Source of the DNA: an uncultured Chitinophaga sp. | GTDB lineage: Bacteria > Bacteroidota > Bacteroidia > Cytophagales > Cyclobacteriaceae | DNA length: 64,000 nucleotides | Direction of reading: 5' to 3' | Assembly (NCBI GenBank): GCA_902168205.1 | Contig: CABHOK010000014.1 | Span: 496,001 to 560,000, forward strand | Position numbers and translations under genes: made by a program | The notes under the pieces: model-generated | What the model saw: the letters and a program-made list of their open reading frames with translations, nothing else | What the model was told of the DNA's origin: nothing | Databases searched by the model: none | Shown: positions 1,853 through 9,044 of the stretch, in pieces | Layout: each line of letters opens with the position of its first letter | How positions within the stretch are numbered: the stretch's first letter is position 1

Positions 1853-1861
1853 TTATCCACA
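1853..1861 (+). promoter_or_regulatory. Exact DnaA box TTATCCACA
   Basis: A perfect match to the 9-bp DnaA box in the gap between the cargo gene and the convergent TPR gene. One exact match in either orientation is expected about every 130 kb by chance, so a single site is weak evidence; it gains weight from the second exact box at 3790-3798 and the parS cluster at 8.5 kb. Confidence 0.4.
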
Positions 1862-1886: not shown

Positions 1887-3782
1887 TTAAAAGCGAGGTT
1901 GAGCCGGTTCCGCAAAATCTCCACGCATGGTTCGATATCTTTTTCTTGCTTCGGCCGCATATACACTTCCCGGATATTTGTTGAGGAAGTCACGATATAT
2001 CTCCATCGCTTTCTCTTTATTTTTTAACTGGCGCTCATAAATTTCACCTTGTAAAAAGTAAGCATCGTCAGCCAGTATATCATCAGCGAATTCATCGCGA
2101 ATTTTTTGAAGCAGACCAATTGCGTTATCAAACTCTCCACGTTTCATGCGAATATTTGCTTCAAGCCAATATACATCGTCAAGTATAGTCTGGTTTGACA
2201 CTGCCTTTCCTGCAACAGAAAATCCCTGCTTCAATTTATCAAGTCGCGCCAACGCTTCATCCGTTTTGTTCTGGTAGAGCATCAGTTCAATGGAAGCATA
2301 CTCCTGGAGCGCTTCACCGGCAGAATCGAGGGCTATATTTTCTTTAATGCGCATGCTCAGGTCAAGCGCATCGTTGGCGATTTCACGAGTCGTTGCTTCT
2401 TTAAGAATATCGAGGTGTTCCTGCGCAAGCCTGAAGTCGCCTTTGTAGTAGGATAGTTTTGCATTCTTCAACTTGGCCTCATAACCAATGGGATTTTCTT
2501 TTTGTGTTTTTTCTACTTGCGAGTATAGCAGCGTAGATTCCCACGGCTCGGCTTTCAAAAGATAAATGTCTCCGAGATCCAATTTTGCCTTTGACCGGAG
2601 GTATAGCGAAGTGCGTGTATTGGCGATGAGTTTATTTAAAATTTTTACGGCCGAATCTTTTTGATCCAGGTAATTGGCAAAGAGCAACGCTTCGCTTCGT
2701 GCCGCTTCCAGAGCGTTTGCGTTATCCGGATATTGTTTGATAAATTTTCTGTAATCCGTTACCAGTGTTTTAACTGAATCTGTATTTACCGGGTAGATTT
2801 TTTTTAATCTGGCTTCGCGTGTACGAATGAGGCCTAAGGTTGCCATCAGGTAGTTGGGTGTGTTTCTATACTCACGAATGATGTAGCGGTAAATCTTTGC
2901 TGCGTTATCATAGTCTTCATTGTCCAAAGCCACTTTGGCAACTTCCATACTTTTTTCGCCATCGTGTTTATAGCGCTTGTCGTAAGCCCGCGCCTGGACG
3001 AAAGACGCGTAGAAATTTTTCTGCTGCATCGTTACCCAGATCAGCAGATCCGAGTATACTTCCACGTCCGGAAATTCCTGTACGCGGTCGTATAGTAATT
3101 TTTCCAGGCTCGTTAGTTCTTCAGGTTCCGTCAAAAGAGCCTGCATCACATTTTTTACATATTGAATATTGGCTGAGGTCTGTGTTACGTAATTCAGATA
3201 TTCCTGCACCATTTTATCTTGATTTCCCTTCAGTCGATACAGCATGGCCAGGTCGAGACTGAAGAGTGTGGAATTGTTTAGAAAGTTTCGGCTTTCAGTG
3301 AGCGAGAGTATGCCGTAATCGAGCAGTGAACGTGACGAGAAGAATTCTGCCATAAGCTTTATACGCTGCACGTTCGTTTTATTTTCAGCAATCAACTCAC
3401 GGAAGTAACGATCGGCCCGTGTAAGGTCTCCAGAACGCACGTAGACGAGTCCTGCATCGAGCTTGTACTGCAGATTCTCCGGATCGCGCTTTAATAATTT
3501 TTTTAAGAAGCCTTGTGCTTCATCGTACGCCCCCAGGTCGAGCAGCGTGTTTATATAGTTGTTGTAAATAAAAGAATTGTTCACATCCTGTTTGGACAAC
3601 TCACGATAAAGCTCAACCGCTTTTTTCTTATCACCTTTTAAAAGATACTCATTCGCGAGCTGTATTTCGGATTGATTCTGTCCGAACGAAAGGTGAACAA
3701 GAAGAACAAGGAACGTTATTAAGATTGAACGTTGACTAATAGTATTAATTAAATAATATATATAGTATTTATAATTAGTCAT
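1887..3782 (-). CDS. Secreted tetratricopeptide-repeat protein
   Basis: A 631-residue protein with a hydrophobic signal segment (about residues 18-34, ending SFGQ) and then helical TPR units almost to the end: the N-terminal repeats contain NEYLLKGDKKKAVELYREL and the C-terminal ones YEAKLKNAKLSYYKGDF and AYFLQGEIYERQLKNKEKAM. TPR arrays are protein-docking scaffolds; in this phylum such proteins are often periplasmic or outer-membrane associated. No enzymatic domain is visible. The ATG at 3782 is the only good start before the signal segment, although it gives an unusually long charged N-region. The gene is transcribed alone, from the 3783-4036 spacer. The partner is unknown. Confidence 0.8.
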   Translation of the reverse strand: MTNYKYYIYYLINTISQRSILITFLVLLVHLSFGQNQSEIQLANEYLLKGDKKKAVELYRELSKQDVNNSFIYNNYINTLLDLGAYDEAQGFLKKLLKRDPENLQYKLDAGLVYVRSGDLTRADRYFRELIAENKTNVQRIKLMAEFFSSRSLLDYGILSLTESRNFLNNSTLFSLDLAMLYRLKGNQDKMVQEYLNYVTQTSANIQYVKNVMQALLTEPEELTSLEKLLYDRVQEFPDVEVYSDLLIWVTMQQKNFYASFVQARAYDKRYKHDGEKSMEVAKVALDNEDYDNAAKIYRYIIREYRNTPNYLMATLGLIRTREARLKKIYPVNTDSVKTLVTDYRKFIKQYPDNANALEAARSEALLFANYLDQKDSAVKILNKLIANTRTSLYLRSKAKLDLGDIYLLKAEPWESTLLYSQVEKTQKENPIGYEAKLKNAKLSYYKGDFRLAQEHLDILKEATTREIANDALDLSMRIKENIALDSAGEALQEYASIELMLYQNKTDEALARLDKLKQGFSVAGKAVSNQTILDDVYWLEANIRMKRGEFDNAIGLLQKIRDEFADDILADDAYFLQGEIYERQLKNKEKAMEIYRDFLNKYPGSVYAAEARKRYRTMRGDFAEPAQPRF

Positions 3783-4036
3783 GTCGAAATGTGGATAAGG
3801 TTTCGTTGTTCTTTGTGTTGAATGAATGTTGAATGAATTTACAGTTTAATTATCTCTTTATCAATAGGTTGTGAAGTTGTTAACATATATACGTTGAGTG
3901 GGTAAGTTGCGTGTGGATAGAGTACGATGTTAGTGTATGTTGGTAACTTGGTTTTCATACACATTGTTGTGCATGGGTTGGTAACAATCAGGATTTCGAC
4001 AAAGTTTGACTGGTTTTTTCAACATCATTTAACAAG
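3783..4036. promoter_or_regulatory. GT-rich spacer with DnaA boxes, possible promoter or origin element
   Basis: This 254-bp spacer upstream of the TPR gene has strongly skewed composition: for example 3901-3960 holds 19 G and only 5 C on the plus strand. It contains an exact inverted DnaA box (TGTGGATAA, 3790-3798), a one-mismatch copy (TGTGGATAG, 3912-3920) and, just beyond it, TTATCAACA near 4049. No TAnnTTTG promoter element is seen on the minus strand. It could be a regulatory spacer or part of an origin-proximal DnaA-binding region; sequence alone does not decide. Confidence 0.35.
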
Positions 4037-5734
4037 TTATGGATACTTTATCAACAATGGTCCGACCTCCCAATTCGCTTTTAAGTTGATAACTGGATTA
4101 GCTTTTTCGTTCCTGTAAAAACGTATAGGTTCTGGTTCGTGTTTGAGAATATAATTTCCTGGTGACCATTTGCCGTCATTATCTTTATCTATGATTAGTC
4201 GGATTTGATATTCGGATGGGCTCAGATCTTCGAACTGTGGTTTACGAATATTTTTTTGTGATGCGATAACATTGAAATTTTTATCAAGCAGTTCTACTAT
4301 AAAGTTTGGTTCAGTTGTTTGTACATCAATAAAAATAATACCTGTCTCCTCGAGTGCTATGGGTTTAAGTTGCTCTTCTGAATGCTTGGAGCTGTCGAGC
4401 TCTATACTGACGAAGGCACCTTTACCAAATAAGAGTTGATGGCTTACGACTTTTTTCGGAGCTGTCTTGGTTTGAGGAGAGGGCTTTTGAATTGGAGTTG
4501 TTGCCTTGATTTCTGATTCTGTTGGTTTGGCGAGTAAACTTTTGTCAAATGTTTTTTCTATAGTGAGACGATTATGCAGGCTGTCCCAGAGAATGTTTTC
4601 ACGTGAAAAAGTAATTGTCTTTGCTGAATCAATTCGGTAGATGATACTATCGAAATGAACATCAAGGAGAGGTTTGTTGAACTGTACTTTTCCCTTGATG
4701 GTGCCTTTGTTGGCTAGTACTCTAAAGCCCTCAGATTTTGTAGTAAAGGCTTCCGGTTTTACTTCACGTTCACTGAACTTTGCGTAGAGAACAGTGTCGA
4801 GAGAATTGTTTACACTATCGAGTGCTTGAAGCGTTATAGCTACACTATCCTTGGTGTCAAAGGTGTTATAGATTTTTATGTTAGACTGATCGTCACCAAA
4901 AGAAGACATAACAACTTCGCCCGGAGAGGACAACCTGAATTGTTTTAGATTCTTAGAGGTTTTGATGTTGAAGTAAGTATTGTAAGGCCGGGAGTTTGTA
5001 AGCTTGAGCGGACGGGCATCGAGTTTGATCAGAGGGATATTGATTGACTTGATATCTTTTGTGAGATTGATGCTATCTACAAGAAAGCCGTAAGACTCAG
5101 TTTTACTGTCAACAATCAGGTTTCGGTTTTTATCATCTATTCCGTAGAGGTGATATATACCGGGTTTTAGATTTTCAAGTCTGTATCTTCCTTTGTCATT
5201 GCTTTTGGTAAGATAGACTGGTTTATGTTTTAGAATGTTGAAGGTGTCGCTTTCATATAGTGCGATGGTAACATCTTTATACTCTTTGTTTTTGAGTGGA
5301 TCTACAGCTGTCCCGTCAATGGATAATGAATCTATGTAGGACCCTGTACTTAGCGCAAGTTTGAGATTGACTGAAGGATTCTTTTCAGTTATATCTTGAA
5401 CGGCATCACGGAAGTTGAAAGAGTAAGTAGTGCTGTCTTTGAGTTTGGCTTTCAGTGTGAGGCTTACTTTATTCTTTCGGGCAATGATGTCGTACTCTTT
5501 ATTAATATCTGGCGTTATGATAATTTGCTCTTTTGGATTATTAACTGCAACGGCTTCATCGAATATAAGCTCTATAGTATTGTCTTTGAAGTTGGTTTGT
5601 TCCTTTACCGGGAATGATCGCATGAGTATAGGAGGTATGGTATCTTTAGGACCACCCGTTGGCGAGGTTTGTCTTGCGCATGAAAGAATGAACAAAGGAA
5701 ATATTAACCAGTGTAAATTTTTTTTCAGTTTCAT
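4037..5734 (-). CDS. Ig-like domain lipoprotein
   Basis: A 565-residue lipoprotein: the signal peptide ends in the lipobox ILSC with Cys19 as lipidated residue. Residues about 30-130 match the bacterial Ig-like (Big_5) fold that opens with PPILMRSFPVKEQTNF and the phrase IELIFDEAV. A Cna/SpaA-like or carboxypeptidase-regulatory module (YRLENLKPGIYHLYGIDD) follows near 190-210, and a similar C-terminal module (FEDLSPSEYQIRLIIDKDNDGKWSPG) ends the protein. This family is common in Bacteroidota and has no assigned biochemical role; a cell-envelope structural or binding role is inferred. The start overlaps the stop of the upstream methyltransferase by 4 bases, so it is the third gene of the mnmG operon. 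Confidence 0.8.
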   Translation of the reverse strand: MKLKKNLHWLIFPLFILSCARQTSPTGGPKDTIPPILMRSFPVKEQTNFKDNTIELIFDEAVAVNNPKEQIIITPDINKEYDIIARKNKVSLTLKAKLKDSTTYSFNFRDAVQDITEKNPSVNLKLALSTGSYIDSLSIDGTAVDPLKNKEYKDVTIALYESDTFNILKHKPVYLTKSNDKGRYRLENLKPGIYHLYGIDDKNRNLIVDSKTESYGFLVDSINLTKDIKSINIPLIKLDARPLKLTNSRPYNTYFNIKTSKNLKQFRLSSPGEVVMSSFGDDQSNIKIYNTFDTKDSVAITLQALDSVNNSLDTVLYAKFSEREVKPEAFTTKSEGFRVLANKGTIKGKVQFNKPLLDVHFDSIIYRIDSAKTITFSRENILWDSLHNRLTIEKTFDKSLLAKPTESEIKATTPIQKPSPQTKTAPKKVVSHQLLFGKGAFVSIELDSSKHSEEQLKPIALEETGIIFIDVQTTEPNFIVELLDKNFNVIASQKNIRKPQFEDLSPSEYQIRLIIDKDNDGKWSPGNYILKHEPEPIRFYRNEKANPVINLKANWEVGPLLIKYP

Positions 5735-6618
5735 TTTCTAACTATGTATATCAGGCTTGAGTATTGACCGTTTTTTGTAGCAAGTATATTTGACTTCAAT
5801 CCGTTTATAAATGCTGCGATCATTCCGGTGATTGTTGTATTTCCTCTCCTATACTTTTCACTCAGAAGAGATATATAGAATGAGTCGAGTTTCATCGGTA
5901 TAATCTGTTTTACTTTTAATCCGTTGTTCTCAACTAGCTTCGTCATGGTTTGGTCTGAGAAGTGCCACAGATGTCTTGGTACATCGTAGCCCGCCCAATG
6001 TGCTTTATACTTTTTTCCATCCCAGCTTGAATGATTGGGTACAGCAATAAACATTGTGCCATTCTCTGAGAGAATTGATTTTAGTTTCTGAAGAAGTTCA
6101 TTCAGATCAGGAACGTGTTCAAGCACGTGCCACATAGTGATAGCATCGAACGTGTCGTCCTGTATTTCATCAAGTGATTTATAAACAGGGGCATTTGTTA
6201 TCTTCTTTGCTTCCTCCCTGGCTTGAGTGGATGGTTCTATCCCGAATGACTTCCAATTGTCTTTAGTTGCTGCGTGAAGGAAGGCTCCGGTTCCACAGCC
6301 ATAGTCAAGTAGTTTGTTCTCGGTGCGCGTAGTGTTATTCAGGATAAGGTTACGTTTCCATGTTAGAGTATAGTTTCGAGCTGTCAGATATACTTTGTCA
6401 ATTAATGTTTTCGCTTCGTTGGTGTGGGAGATGTAGTCATCAGACAAATAGTACTTTCCGAGCTCAGAGTCACTTGGCCTTGGACTAGTTATTAAGAAGT
6501 GGCATTGTTCACATAGTACAAGTGTGAAATTTTCTTGCGTAACGGTATAGTCTTTACAGGTGAATACATTTTGAAAATTATGGTTGCCACATATGGGGCA
6601 ATTTGTAACAGCGATCAT
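5731..6618 (-). CDS. Class I SAM-dependent methyltransferase with N-terminal zinc ribbon
   Basis: 295 residues. The N-terminus carries two CxxC pairs (C7/C10 and C36/C39) that would form a zinc ribbon, followed by a Rossmann methyltransferase domain with motif [13 protein letters not shown] near residue 103 and the HVLEHVPDL post-motif typical of Methyltransf_23 proteins. This zinc-ribbon type is often found in sugar or glycan methylation, and sometimes in RNA or small-molecule methylation; the substrate cannot be told from sequence. Translational coupling is likely: it overlaps mnmG by 4 bases upstream and the Ig-like lipoprotein by 4 bases downstream. Confidence 0.85.
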
Positions 6619-8480
6619 TTGCCTAGATAAATAGTTAATACAGAAATGTCAGATGGCGATACACCACTGATTCGGGTTGCTTGTCCTAATGTTTCGGGTT
6701 TTATTTTCTTAAGTTTTTCTCTTGCTTCCGATGAAAGTGCCTTTACCCTATCATAGTCGAAGTCGGATTTGATTTTGAAGTCCTCAAGCGTTCCTATCTT
6801 TTCGGCAAGCTTTTGCTCACGATCGATATAGCTTTCATACTTTATACTTATCTCTACCTGTTCTTGTACTTCAATGGAATATTTGTCGAGTAGTTCCCTT
6901 GTTTCAGTACTTAAGGCTTTTATTTCTTTGATGCTGAGTTGGGGTCTTTTAAGAAGATGAGCCACGGAGGCTTTCTCATCAATAGTTGAAGTATTGAATT
7001 GAGTCAGTCCATCATTCACTATTGCGGGGTCGAGTTTAGCCTTCTTTAGTTGTTGAAGCAGATGGTTAATGTGTTCTTTTTTAGTTTGCACCTTTTCAAG
7101 CCTTTTGTCACTTGCTAGTCCGATGCTATGCCCTATTTCAGTTAATCTAAGGTCTGCATTGTCTTGTCTTAGTAGAATTCTGTACTCCGCTCTTGAGGTG
7201 AACATCCTGTATGGTTCTTGGGTGCCCTTGTTAACTAAGTCGTCTATCAGTACGCCGATATAAGCTTCCGATCTTTTCAGGATGAGTGGTTCTTTGCTAT
7301 GTGCTTTGTTGTGGGCATTGATTCCTGCCATGAGGCCTTGGCATGCTGCCTCTTCGTATCCTGTGGTCCCGTTGATTTGGCCTGCAAAGAAGAGTCCCTC
7401 TACTCTTTGCGTTTCAAGGCTCAATTGTAGCTGAGTTGGTGGGAAGAAGTCGTACTCTATTGCGTAACCAGGGCGGAACATTTTAGCCTTTTCAAAACCT
7501 GGTATCTTGGTGAGGGCTTGATATTGTACATCTTCAGGTAGAGAGGTAGAGAATCCATTTACATAGATCTCAACGGTGTTCCATCCTTCTGGCTCTACAA
7601 AGATCTGGTGTCTTTCACGCTCAGCGAATCGATTTATCTTGTCTTCTATGGATGGACAGTATCTTGGGCCTAAGCCTTTAATGCGACCCTGGAACATTGG
7701 AGATTTCTCGAAGCCTTTCTTGAGTTCGTGATGGACTTCGTCATTAGTATAGGTTATCCAGCAGCTTATTTGTTTTTCTAAAGTTTTGGTATCGCCGTAG
7801 GAGAACTTTGCGGGTTGTTCATCTCCTGGTTGTTCTTCCATTTTTGAATAATCGAGACTCCTACCATCTATTCGCGGCGGAGTCCCTGTTTTCATTCTCC
7901 CTGACTCAAATCCTAACGAGACCAATTGCTCAGTAAGACCAGTGGCTGCACCTTCTGCTGTTCTGCCTCCACCGAAGTTCTTTTCTCCTATGTGAATCTT
8001 CCCATTCAGGAATGTTCCGTTGGTCAGTACGACCGCGTTGGCTTTTATCTCTAAACCGAGACTAGTCTTTATTCCAACTGCCCTTCCATTCTTAACCAGT
8101 ACTTCTTTGACCATTTCTTGCCAGAAGTCCAGGTTAGGAGTTTGTTCAAGAGCTAATCTCCATTCTTCAGAGAATCTCATTCTATCGTTCTGCGTTCTTG
8201 GACTCCACATAGCAGGACCCTTAGATCTGTTGAGCATTCGGAATTGAATCATGGATTTATCTGAGATAATCCCCGACATACCTCCAAGGGCGTCTATCTC
8301 TCGCACTATTTGACCTTTGGCTACACCACCCATTGCCGGGTTACAAGACATTTGGGCAATAGTGTTCATGTTCATGGTGACCATTAACACTTTCGAGCCC
8401 ATTCTGGCCGCGGCATGTGCCGCCTCACAGCCGGCATGCCCAGCCCCCACCACAATAACATCGTAATCTGGAAACATCAT
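6615..8480 (-). CDS. mnmG: tRNA uridine-5-carboxymethylaminomethyl(34) synthesis enzyme MnmG
   Basis: 621 residues, full length for MnmG (GidA). The N-terminus has the FAD-binding motif [19 protein letters not shown] (GxGxxG), followed by the family signatures [22 protein letters not shown] and [13 protein letters not shown]. The middle has the [25 protein letters not shown] block. With MnmE it installs the cmnm5 group at the wobble uridine of tRNAs, using FAD, methylenetetrahydrofolate and glycine or ammonium. In many bacteria this gene lies beside the replication origin; here three parS sites lie directly upstream (8509-8617). It is the first gene of a tightly overlapping three-gene operon. 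Confidence 0.97.
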
Positions 8481-8508: not shown

Positions 8509-8524
8509 TGTTCCACGTGGAACG
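8509..8524. promoter_or_regulatory. parS site 1 (ParB-binding palindrome)
   Basis: Contains the 14-bp perfect palindrome GTTCCACGTGGAAC (8510-8523), within TGTTCCACGTGGAACG. This is the parS sequence bound by the chromosome-partition protein ParB, in the CC/GG variant known from Pseudomonas. It lies 30 bases upstream of the mnmG start codon. Confidence 0.9.
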
Positions 8525-8563
8525 AAAAGTTGCCCACAAAATTCATCCACATTTCCACATTTG

Positions 8564-8579
8564 TGTTCCACGTGGAACG
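8564..8579. promoter_or_regulatory. parS site 2
   Basis: Second identical 14-bp palindrome (8565-8578), centred 55 bp from site 1. The stretch between them holds ATCCACA and TTCCACA, which resemble partial DnaA boxes. Confidence 0.9.
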
Positions 8580-8601
8580 TGAATAAATCTGCAGGGGTTG
8601 T

Positions 8602-8617
8602 TGTTCCACGTGGAACA
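8602..8617. promoter_or_regulatory. parS site 3 (perfect 16-mer)
   Basis: TGTTCCACGTGGAACA, a perfect 16-bp palindrome, centred 38 bp from site 2 and ending one base before the ybeY stop codon. Three copies in about 110 bp of one spacer cannot be chance. Confidence 0.92.
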
Positions 8618-8618
8618 G

Positions 8619-9044
8619 TCATTTTCCTCTCAAAGATAGGTAAGTGTCCTCTTTTCTTTTCATCTGGGCTTTCTTGGTAGATCCCTTGTCTGAGTAGCCG
8701 ATTAGGTGAAGGACTCCATGAATTATCACGCGGTGAAGTTCTTCATCGAAAGATGTGTTGAATTTGGAGGCATTTTCTTGGATTCTTTCAACGCTTATAA
8801 AAATGTCTCCCTCTATTAATCCCTTTGTTTCGCTGCTGTCGAACGTAACAATGTCTGTGTAGGTGGTGTGATTGAGGTATTGGACGTTTATGGAGTGCAG
8901 GTATTCGTCAGAGCAAAAAATGAAATTCACATTGCCCTGCTCTTTCTTCTCTTTTTGTATAGTCTCTTTAATCCAGTTGGTGGTTTTCCGCGGATGAGGG
9001 ATTTTAAATTGTACGTCTTCCGCAAAGAATCGAATAGAAGCCAT
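8619..9044 (-). CDS. ybeY: Endoribonuclease YbeY (rRNA maturation)
   Basis: 141 residues with the UPF0054/YbeY core VIIHGVLHLIGYSDK. YbeY is a zinc-dependent RNase acting in 16S rRNA 3' maturation and ribosome quality control. His109 and His113 fit the H-x3-H metal motif; the third ligand, His in E. coli, is Asp119 here, a substitution I recall as usual in Bacteroidota members. The start ATG overlaps the upstream anti-sigma-type gene by one base (TGATG), so the two are co-transcribed. The stop codon is immediately next to the third parS site. Confidence 0.93.
   Translation of the reverse strand: MASIRFFAEDVQFKIPHPRKTTNWIKETIQKEKKEQGNVNFIFCSDEYLHSINVQYLNHTTYTDIVTFDSSETKGLIEGDIFISVERIQENASKFNTSFDEELHRVIIHGVLHLIGYSDKGSTKKAQMKRKEDTYLSLRGK

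What the first reader, a model, noticed from the sequence alone, without database searches (positions are those of the whole stretch)
8509..8617. Three perfect parS palindromes directly beside mnmG
The 139-bp spacer between ybeY and mnmG holds three exact copies of GTTCCACGTGGAAC in 108 bp (8510, 8565, 8603), and the last is a perfect 16-mer. This is the ParB-binding parS sequence, and mnmG (gidA) is a classic origin neighbour. Such a tight trio suggests the main ParB-nucleation centre of the chromosome. The spacer is also the promoter region of the mnmG operon, so ParB spreading could affect its expression.
Basis: partly seen in the sequence, partly recalled or inferred. Interest (0 to 1): 0.7.

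Follow-up and report, generated by a model that had tools for sequence, protein, structure and literature searches.

The report
Chromosome centromere beside the replication origin
Three copies of the DNA tag that bacteria use as a centromere sit beside the gene mnmG, close to the predicted start point of DNA replication; this is a normal feature, but its place beside mnmG is widely kept across the Bacteroidota phylum although the proteins that use it are encoded far away.

Summary
Observation confirmed: GTTCCACGTGGAAC occurs exactly three times in the 7.30-Mb genome, all in the 138-bp ybeY–mnmG spacer, with no one-mismatch copy. Site 3 equals the published P. aeruginosa parS2/parS3 16-mer. The genome has one parAB operon whose ParB carries parS-type recognition residues. 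The trio is very probably the main ParB loading site.

The origin inference holds too, but not through dnaA: dnaA and parAB lie on another contig. In the 400 kb of the contig that I read, the cumulative GC-skew minimum is 12.7 kb away. In four single-contig relatives GC skew fits parS better than dnaA or parB. A DnaA-box cluster, a candidate oriC, recurs about 4–5 kb from mnmG; of 17 relatives not used to find it, 15 have their best cluster at +4.0–5.1 kb and two at +3.99 kb. In this genome itself that cluster is weak.

parS lies within 1.5 kb of mnmG in 35/36, 24/26 and 19/21 genomes, all chosen for having parS. A Bacteroidota −7 box precedes the array; an effect of ParB on mnmG is untested.

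Verdict: an ordinary parS cluster in an informative, conserved layout.

The parts
8510..8523 (.). parS site 1, GTTCCACGTGGAAC (15 of 16 letters of the perfect 16-mer)
8565..8578 (.). parS site 2, GTTCCACGTGGAAC (15 of 16 letters of the perfect 16-mer)
8602..8617 (.). parS site 3, TGTTCCACGTGGAACA, perfect 16-mer, identical to P. aeruginosa parS2/parS3
   Evidence: published sequence in PMC4368675 (passages)
8631..8638 (-). Predicted -7 promoter box TATCTTTG of mnmG, inside the end of ybeY; start of transcription inferred near 8626, so all three parS would lie in the mnmG leader DNA
   Evidence: 29 of 58 loci against 0.24% of 2900 random windows; consensus TANNTTTG from PMC6847099 and PMC9723704 passages. 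No transcript data
8530..8559 (+). DnaA-box-like repeats between parS 1 and 2 (TTGCCCACA, TCATCCACA, ATTTCCACA; 2, 1 and 2 mismatches to TTATCCACA)
   Evidence: the block is nearly identical in L012-L014, but boxes at <=1 mismatch occur between parS copies in only 5 of the 81 loci
6615..8480 (-). mnmG (gidA), tRNA uridine-34 modification enzyme
   Evidence: TIGR00136, 855 bits
8619..9044 (-). ybeY, rRNA maturation RNase
   Evidence: TIGR00043, 102 bits
5731..6618 (-). Methyltransferase gene between mnmG and the candidate oriC
   Evidence: Pfam Methyltransf_23, 99 bits
4037..5734 (-). Gene with Big_5 and DUF2141 domains between mnmG and the candidate oriC
3730..4060 (.). Candidate oriC: DnaA box TGTGGATAA (3790-3798), one-mismatch boxes at 3912-3920 and 4048-4056, AT-rich block at about 3730-3780; 4.5 kb from parS site 1
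   Evidence: conserved in position among relatives, weak in this genome
1887..3782 (-). TPR-repeat gene on the far side of the candidate oriC; its listed ATG lies at the edge of the AT-rich block and is absent in L014, so the true start is probably further inside

Best explanation
The three palindromes are the chromosomal parS array of a Cytophagales bacterium (same GTDB genus as Ohtaekwangia koreensis) and its main ParB loading site. Proposed working: the single ParB, made from a parAB operon elsewhere on the chromosome, loads at the three sites as a CTP-dependent clamp, slides into neighbouring DNA and forms the partition complex; ParA moves that complex, and the complex may recruit the genome's SMC, so that the newly copied origin region separates first. 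Replication starts nearby, most likely at the DnaA-box cluster about 4.5 kb away beyond mnmG. Shown here: the sites, their uniqueness, the parA, parB and smc genes, the GC-skew position, the recurring DnaA-box cluster and the wide parS-mnmG linkage. Inferred: ParB binding, clamp loading, SMC recruitment, segregation and origin firing.
For: Only exact copies in 7.3 Mb (0.018 expected). Site 3 is identical to P. [quoted passage not shown] One ParB over the cut-off beside parA, with Q162, G170, K171, R173, N178, G201 and R204 of the parS-reading surface (residues from PMC7383237 passages; checked) and a GERR motif. One SMC_prok_B over the cut-off, 1052 bits. GC-skew minimum 12.7 kb away. GC-skew fit at parS 0.58/0.79/0.79/0.85 against 0.29/0.59/0.22/-0.03 at dnaA in four relatives. 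GTTYCACGTGRAAC in 112 of 118 family and 121 of 128 phylum genomes, near mnmG in 35/36, 24/26 and 19/21 examined. DnaA-box cluster at the predicted place in held-out genomes.
Against: No binding, localisation or replication data. Own-genome skew is weak and noisy and only 400 of 876 kb of the contig was read. In relative G085 the best GC-skew fit is 0.24 Mb and the best third-position fit 0.56-0.82 Mb from parS; gene-strand bias in G030 fits dnaA better than parS, 0.36 against 0.12. The candidate oriC has 3 boxes in this genome, and a 4-box cluster lies 68 kb from the array. NCBIfam's Noc model scores the ParB at 233 bits, above the 180 of the ParB model, though below its own cut-off of 315. 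ParB has S172N, T179Y and A184K against Caulobacter. Eight Hymenobacter loci of 80 lack a site beside mnmG.
Confidence: 0.93

Rival explanations
1. The palindromes are operators of a transcription regulator of mnmG, not a centromere; they sit just behind a promoter.
For: A -7 box TATCTTTG stands in the 60 bp before the first site in 29 of 58 loci, and in 34 of the 36 family rows at least one site lies within 130 bp of the mnmG start.
Against: The sequence is a published parS. In 13 of 26 wider rows sites lie on both sides of mnmG, in one row inside it, and in three Hymenobacter genomes the one exact site is 26-31 kb away: the sites follow the region rather than the promoter. They coincide with the skew origin. 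Both roles are possible at once.
Confidence: 0.03
2. The palindromes act as RNA hairpins in the mnmG leader.
For: They would be transcribed if the predicted promoter is right, and GUUCCACGUGGAAC can pair with itself.
Against: Of 114 sites upstream of mnmG in 58 loci, on the mnmG sense strand, 35 have C at position 4 and A at position 11 (no pair in RNA) and only 9 have T and G (a wobble), with 50 C-G and 20 T-A. Selection for a hairpin should favour the reverse. Sites on the far side of mnmG are not leaders. No folding was computed.
Confidence: 0.01
3. The sites belong to a Noc-type nucleoid-occlusion protein rather than ParB.
For: The Noc model scores the protein at 233 bits, more than the ParB model at 180; Noc 7ng0 is a 4e-45 match; residue 184 is lysine, a Noc-permissive residue.
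Against: The Noc score is below that model's cut-off of 315 bits, the ParB score above its own of 58. The protein has R173 and G201, which read parS, not Q173 and R201. Only one such gene was found, beside parA. The sites carry the parS letters at the two positions that differ (letters of the Noc site partly recalled).
Confidence: 0.01
4. The array is real parS, but the replication origin is elsewhere in the neighbourhood, for instance at the denser DnaA-box cluster 68 kb away, and 3730-4060 is a DnaA-binding control site.
For: In 400 kb of this genome the densest cluster (4 boxes in 300 bp) is at C14:572612. 17 of 75 loci have their best cluster outside +3.9 to +5.1 kb. Skew cannot resolve 60 kb here.
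Against: 118 of 226 exact boxes in 80 loci fall in the single bin +4 to +5 kb, and 115 of 240 boxes in 17 new genomes do so; those searches covered only about 10 kb each side, or less, of mnmG. The skew minimum is on the mnmG side of C14.
Confidence: 0.2

Closest known systems
parS1-parS4 cluster of Pseudomonas aeruginosa (PMC4368675, abstract and passages)
   Same: Same 16-mer (parS2/parS3); small cluster near oriC; high-affinity ParB sites
   Different: There parAB is about 7 kb from oriC and six further sites exist; here parAB is on another contig and no other exact or one-mismatch site exists
parS clusters at the skew origin of gut bacteria including Bacteroides caecimuris and Muribaculum intestinale (PMC10197239, passages)
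   Same: parS cluster and GC skew mark ori in Bacteroidota; the paper already says that ori does not always go with dnaA
   Different: The passages do not mention mnmG or an oriC at a fixed place. They report no known condensin in those two species; this genome has an SMC
gidA/mnmG beside oriC in E. coli and Yersinia (PMC10225481 passage)
   Same: mnmG is a neighbour of the origin
   Different: E. coli has no ParB or parS (PMC7383237 passage); here parS is on one side of mnmG and the candidate oriC two genes away on the other
Origin cluster with mnmG, yidC and parAB together, as in Bacillus or Pseudomonas (gene order recalled)
   Same: mnmG with parS near the origin; yidC next to parAB
   Different: Here yidC-parA-parB is separated from mnmG, parS and the origin

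Membership tests
parS (chromosomal centromere site) | Near-perfect 16-bp palindrome TGTTYCACGTGRAACA | tested here: met
   16, 15 and 15 of 16 letters; published identical site
parS (chromosomal centromere site) | Few copies, clustered | tested here: met
   3 copies in 107 bp, no other at <=1 mismatch
parS (chromosomal centromere site) | Near the replication origin | tested here: met
   Skew only, with the exceptions stated; no replication data
parS (chromosomal centromere site) | Bound by the genome's ParB | not testable with these tools
   Needs ChIP-seq or an in vitro binding assay
ParABS system | parA and parB genes in the genome | tested here: met
   parB over cut-off, adjacent ParA-like gene (best ParA model 100 bits, below its cut-off of 180)
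ParABS system | ParB with parS-type recognition residues (R173, G201) and CTP-binding GERR motif | tested here: met
   the role of GERR is recalled
Noc/NBS | Q173 and R201 in the protein | tested here: not met
   R and G
oriC (candidate at 3730-4060) | Cluster of DnaA boxes | tested here: inconclusive
   In this genome 3 boxes at <=1 mismatch, not the densest of 400 kb; recurring dense cluster at the same place in relatives
oriC (candidate at 3730-4060) | AT-rich unwinding element beside the boxes | tested here: met
   76-88% A+T in the 50 bp at +4700 in the window and L012-L016; not at that exact place in L020 (58%) and L030 (72%). Unwinding not tested
oriC (candidate at 3730-4060) | Replication starts there | not testable with these tools
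   Needs marker-frequency or nascent-strand mapping

The most novel reading that the evidence does not exclude
In Bacteroidota the origin kept a fixed layout, parS-mnmG-oriC, while parAB (with yidC) and dnaA lie far away. ParB is loaded directly behind the mnmG promoter, so clamp loading and mnmG transcription compete at each origin, coupling origin segregation to the making of a tRNA-modifying enzyme.
Probability: 0.15. Interest if true: 0.65.

Novelty: new member of a known kind. Interest (0 to 1): 0.42.

Why it matters
It suggests a sequence-based way to find the replication origin in Bacteroidota draft genomes, where dnaA misleads: look for parS at mnmG and, in Cytophagales, for the DnaA-box cluster about 4.5 kb beyond. 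It names one small, widely kept locus in which to test how ParB loading, origin firing and transcription coexist. It also shows centromere sites staying with the origin neighbourhood although the genes of their binding proteins lie elsewhere.

Tried and rejected
dnaA as the origin marker: rejected. It lies on contig C3, and in four single-contig relatives its fit is worse than that of parS by GC skew and by third-position skew; by gene-strand bias it is worse in three and better in one, G030.

RNA hairpin, Noc site and pure operator: see rivals.

The mnmG spacer itself as oriC (DnaA-box-like repeats between parS copies): kept only as a minor feature. 6 boxes at <=1 mismatch were found in 53 inter-parS segments against 1.22 expected, all in 5 of the 81 loci, three of them close relatives.

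-33 promoter element: none seen by eye in the window; not computed. DnaA-trio motifs: not tested. Livny et al. 2007, the parS survey (recalled, and cited in papers seen), is not held, so I cannot say what it reported for Bacteroidota. Nine paper searches listed no paper that, from its title and abstract start or the passages I opened, states the parS-mnmG link or an oriC at this place in Bacteroidota. They cover open-licence papers only; I read listings and passages, no whole paper, and did not open most listed papers.

Rows dropped or chosen: one search uses only genomes whose sites were printed (36 and 26 rows; both lists were cut off) and one genome for each of the 21 families f10-f30, all having at least one match; the genomes without a match (6 of 118, 7 of 128) are not in it. 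The 26 wider rows hold 2 of the same family, 1 of the same order and 23 of the same class. I left out of that table one extra site of G019 (contig C36) and five of G142 (contig C1). One search prints 14 rows with sites on both sides; one (G134) has its second site inside mnmG, so I count 13. In one search, 3 of 20 genomes were set aside as the same species as loci already used. Loci are related to each other, so their ratios are not independent counts.

Full report
Observation. In the whole genome (7,299,025 bp, 20 contigs; the window is C14:496001-560000) they are the only exact copies, with none at one mismatch and six scattered at two; the pattern read backwards gives as many places at up to two mismatches, so only the exact cluster is meaningful. 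0.018 exact copies are expected from base composition. They lie in the 138-bp spacer between the ybeY stop and the mnmG start, both genes on the minus strand.

What the motif is. The 16-mer at 8602-8617 is letter for letter parS2 and parS3 of P. aeruginosa, the sites bound best by ParB there; one origin-proximal high-affinity site suffices for segregation in that species (PMC4368675, abstract and passages). The window's genome has one ParB over the family cut-off, in a yidC-parA-parB gene order. It matches solved ParB, Spo0J and Noc structures (9e-51, 2e-49, 4e-45). NCBIfam's Noc model gives it more bits than the ParB model (233 against 180), but below the Noc cut-off of 315. At the residues that separate parS readers from Noc readers (PMC7383237 passages) it has R173 and G201, the parS pair; of six shared contacts five are kept and S172 is N; 179 is Y and 184 is K. 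One SMC_prok_B protein is over its cut-off.

Position on the chromosome. dnaA and parB lie on contig C3. In the 400 kb of C14 read (of 876 kb) the cumulative GC skew has its minimum at C14:491755, 12.7 kb from the array; the strand-corrected third-position skew is negative in 9 of 9 bins to the left and positive in 9 of 11 from there on, though small. In four single-contig relatives I sampled twenty 20-kb stretches each. A two-replichore model fits GC skew with correlations 0.58, 0.79, 0.79 and 0.85 at parS, against 0.29, 0.59, 0.22 and -0.03 at dnaA and -0.03, -0.39, -0.24 and 0.03 at parB. The best GC-skew fit lies 0 to 0.24 Mb from parS, with samples 0.25-0.35 Mb apart. Third-position skew agrees in three and is 0.56-0.82 Mb off in G085. 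Gene-strand bias is a weaker guide and in G030 favours dnaA (0.36) over parS (0.12). In six single-contig relatives parS lies about 0.9 to 2.7 Mb from dnaA and parB, taking the chromosomes as circles (with lengths).

A candidate oriC. In 80 mnmG loci of named records, mostly Cytophagales, 118 of 226 exact DnaA boxes fall between +4 and +5 kb from the mnmG start, one of 22 bins. Of 75 loci long enough, 58 have their best 400-bp cluster, however weak, at +3.9 to +5.1 kb. Of the other 17, seven have it at +5.2 to +5.6 kb (five of them Hymenobacter) and ten elsewhere, several Pontibacter among them. I then fetched the same region from 20 family genomes; three were the same species as loci already used. 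Of the 17 new ones, 15 have their best cluster at +4.0 to +5.1 kb and two at +3.99 kb, and 115 of 240 boxes (<=1 mismatch) fall in that one bin of 18. In the window this place is 3730-4060, with one exact box, two one-mismatch boxes and a conserved AT-rich block. Against it: within this genome's own 400 kb a denser cluster lies 68 kb from the array and another three-box cluster has two exact boxes.

Conservation of the parS-mnmG link. Within 700 bp upstream of mnmG, 72 of the 80 loci have a site within two mismatches of the window's palindrome; the eight without are all Hymenobacter. In three Hymenobacter genomes searched, one exact GTTYCACGTGRAAC exists, 25.9, 30.6 and 30.6 kb downstream of mnmG; the fourth genome of that search, a Dyadobacter, has one site only, with one mismatch. 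GTTYCACGTGRAAC occurs in 112 of 118 genomes of the family, mostly twice (backwards control: one match in 9 of 118), and in 121 of 128 of the phylum sample (control: one match in 6 of 128). Where positions were printed, a site lies within 1.5 kb of mnmG in 35 of 36 family rows (the other is 6.7 kb away) and 24 of 26 wider rows (the others are on another contig). In 13 of the 26, sites lie on both sides of mnmG, and in one further row a site is inside the gene. One genome from each of 21 further families of the phylum gives 19 of 21. All these rows were conditioned on having a match.

Promoter. In 58 loci (window included) with GTTYCACGTGRAAC upstream of mnmG, TATCTTTG stands in the 60 bp before the first site in 29, against 0.24% of 2900 random windows; in the window it is at 8631-8638 on the minus strand. 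It fits the Bacteroidota -7 box TANNTTTG (PMC6847099 and PMC9723704 passages). It overlaps the end of ybeY, where it codes for Leu-Ser-Leu; none of 216 such tripeptides in longer ORFs of these loci uses this codon string. If right, transcription starts near 8626 and all three parS lie in the mnmG leader DNA. The loci are related, so these ratios overstate the evidence. On effects: P. aeruginosa ParB represses the genes behind two intergenic parS, whereas lack of Spo0J in B. subtilis did not change genes next to its parS (PMC7022226 passages).

Verdict.

Noticed in passing
G000:C14:572612 (about 12.6 kb beyond the right end of the window): The densest DnaA-box cluster of the 400 kb read: 4 boxes at <=1 mismatch in 300 bp, 68 kb from parS. 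Could be a DnaA-titration site or a second origin candidate.
   Followed up: no
L065, L068, L069, L075, L076, L078, L080, L082 (Hymenobacter): No parS beside mnmG; in the three genomes searched one exact site lies 25.9-30.6 kb downstream of mnmG.
   Followed up: partly
G233, G222, G218, G173, G138, G199, G184, G142, G203, G169, G210, G129, G162 (same class): parS sites on both sides of mnmG, so that the gene is bracketed.
   Followed up: partly
58 loci with sites upstream of mnmG: Asymmetric sites have a preferred orientation on the mnmG sense strand: 35 GTTCCACGTGAAAC against 9 GTTTCACGTGGAAC. Shared descent not excluded.
   Followed up: no
window 8530-8559: DnaA-box-like repeats between parS 1 and 2, in a block nearly identical in L012, L013 and L014.
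   Followed up: partly
window 1853-1861: An exact DnaA box TTATCCACA between two convergent genes, about 2 kb from the candidate oriC.
   Followed up: no
L010 (G000:C3, about 1.3 Mb): parA-parB follow a yidC gene, far from mnmG, as if an ancestral origin gene cluster had split.
   Followed up: partly
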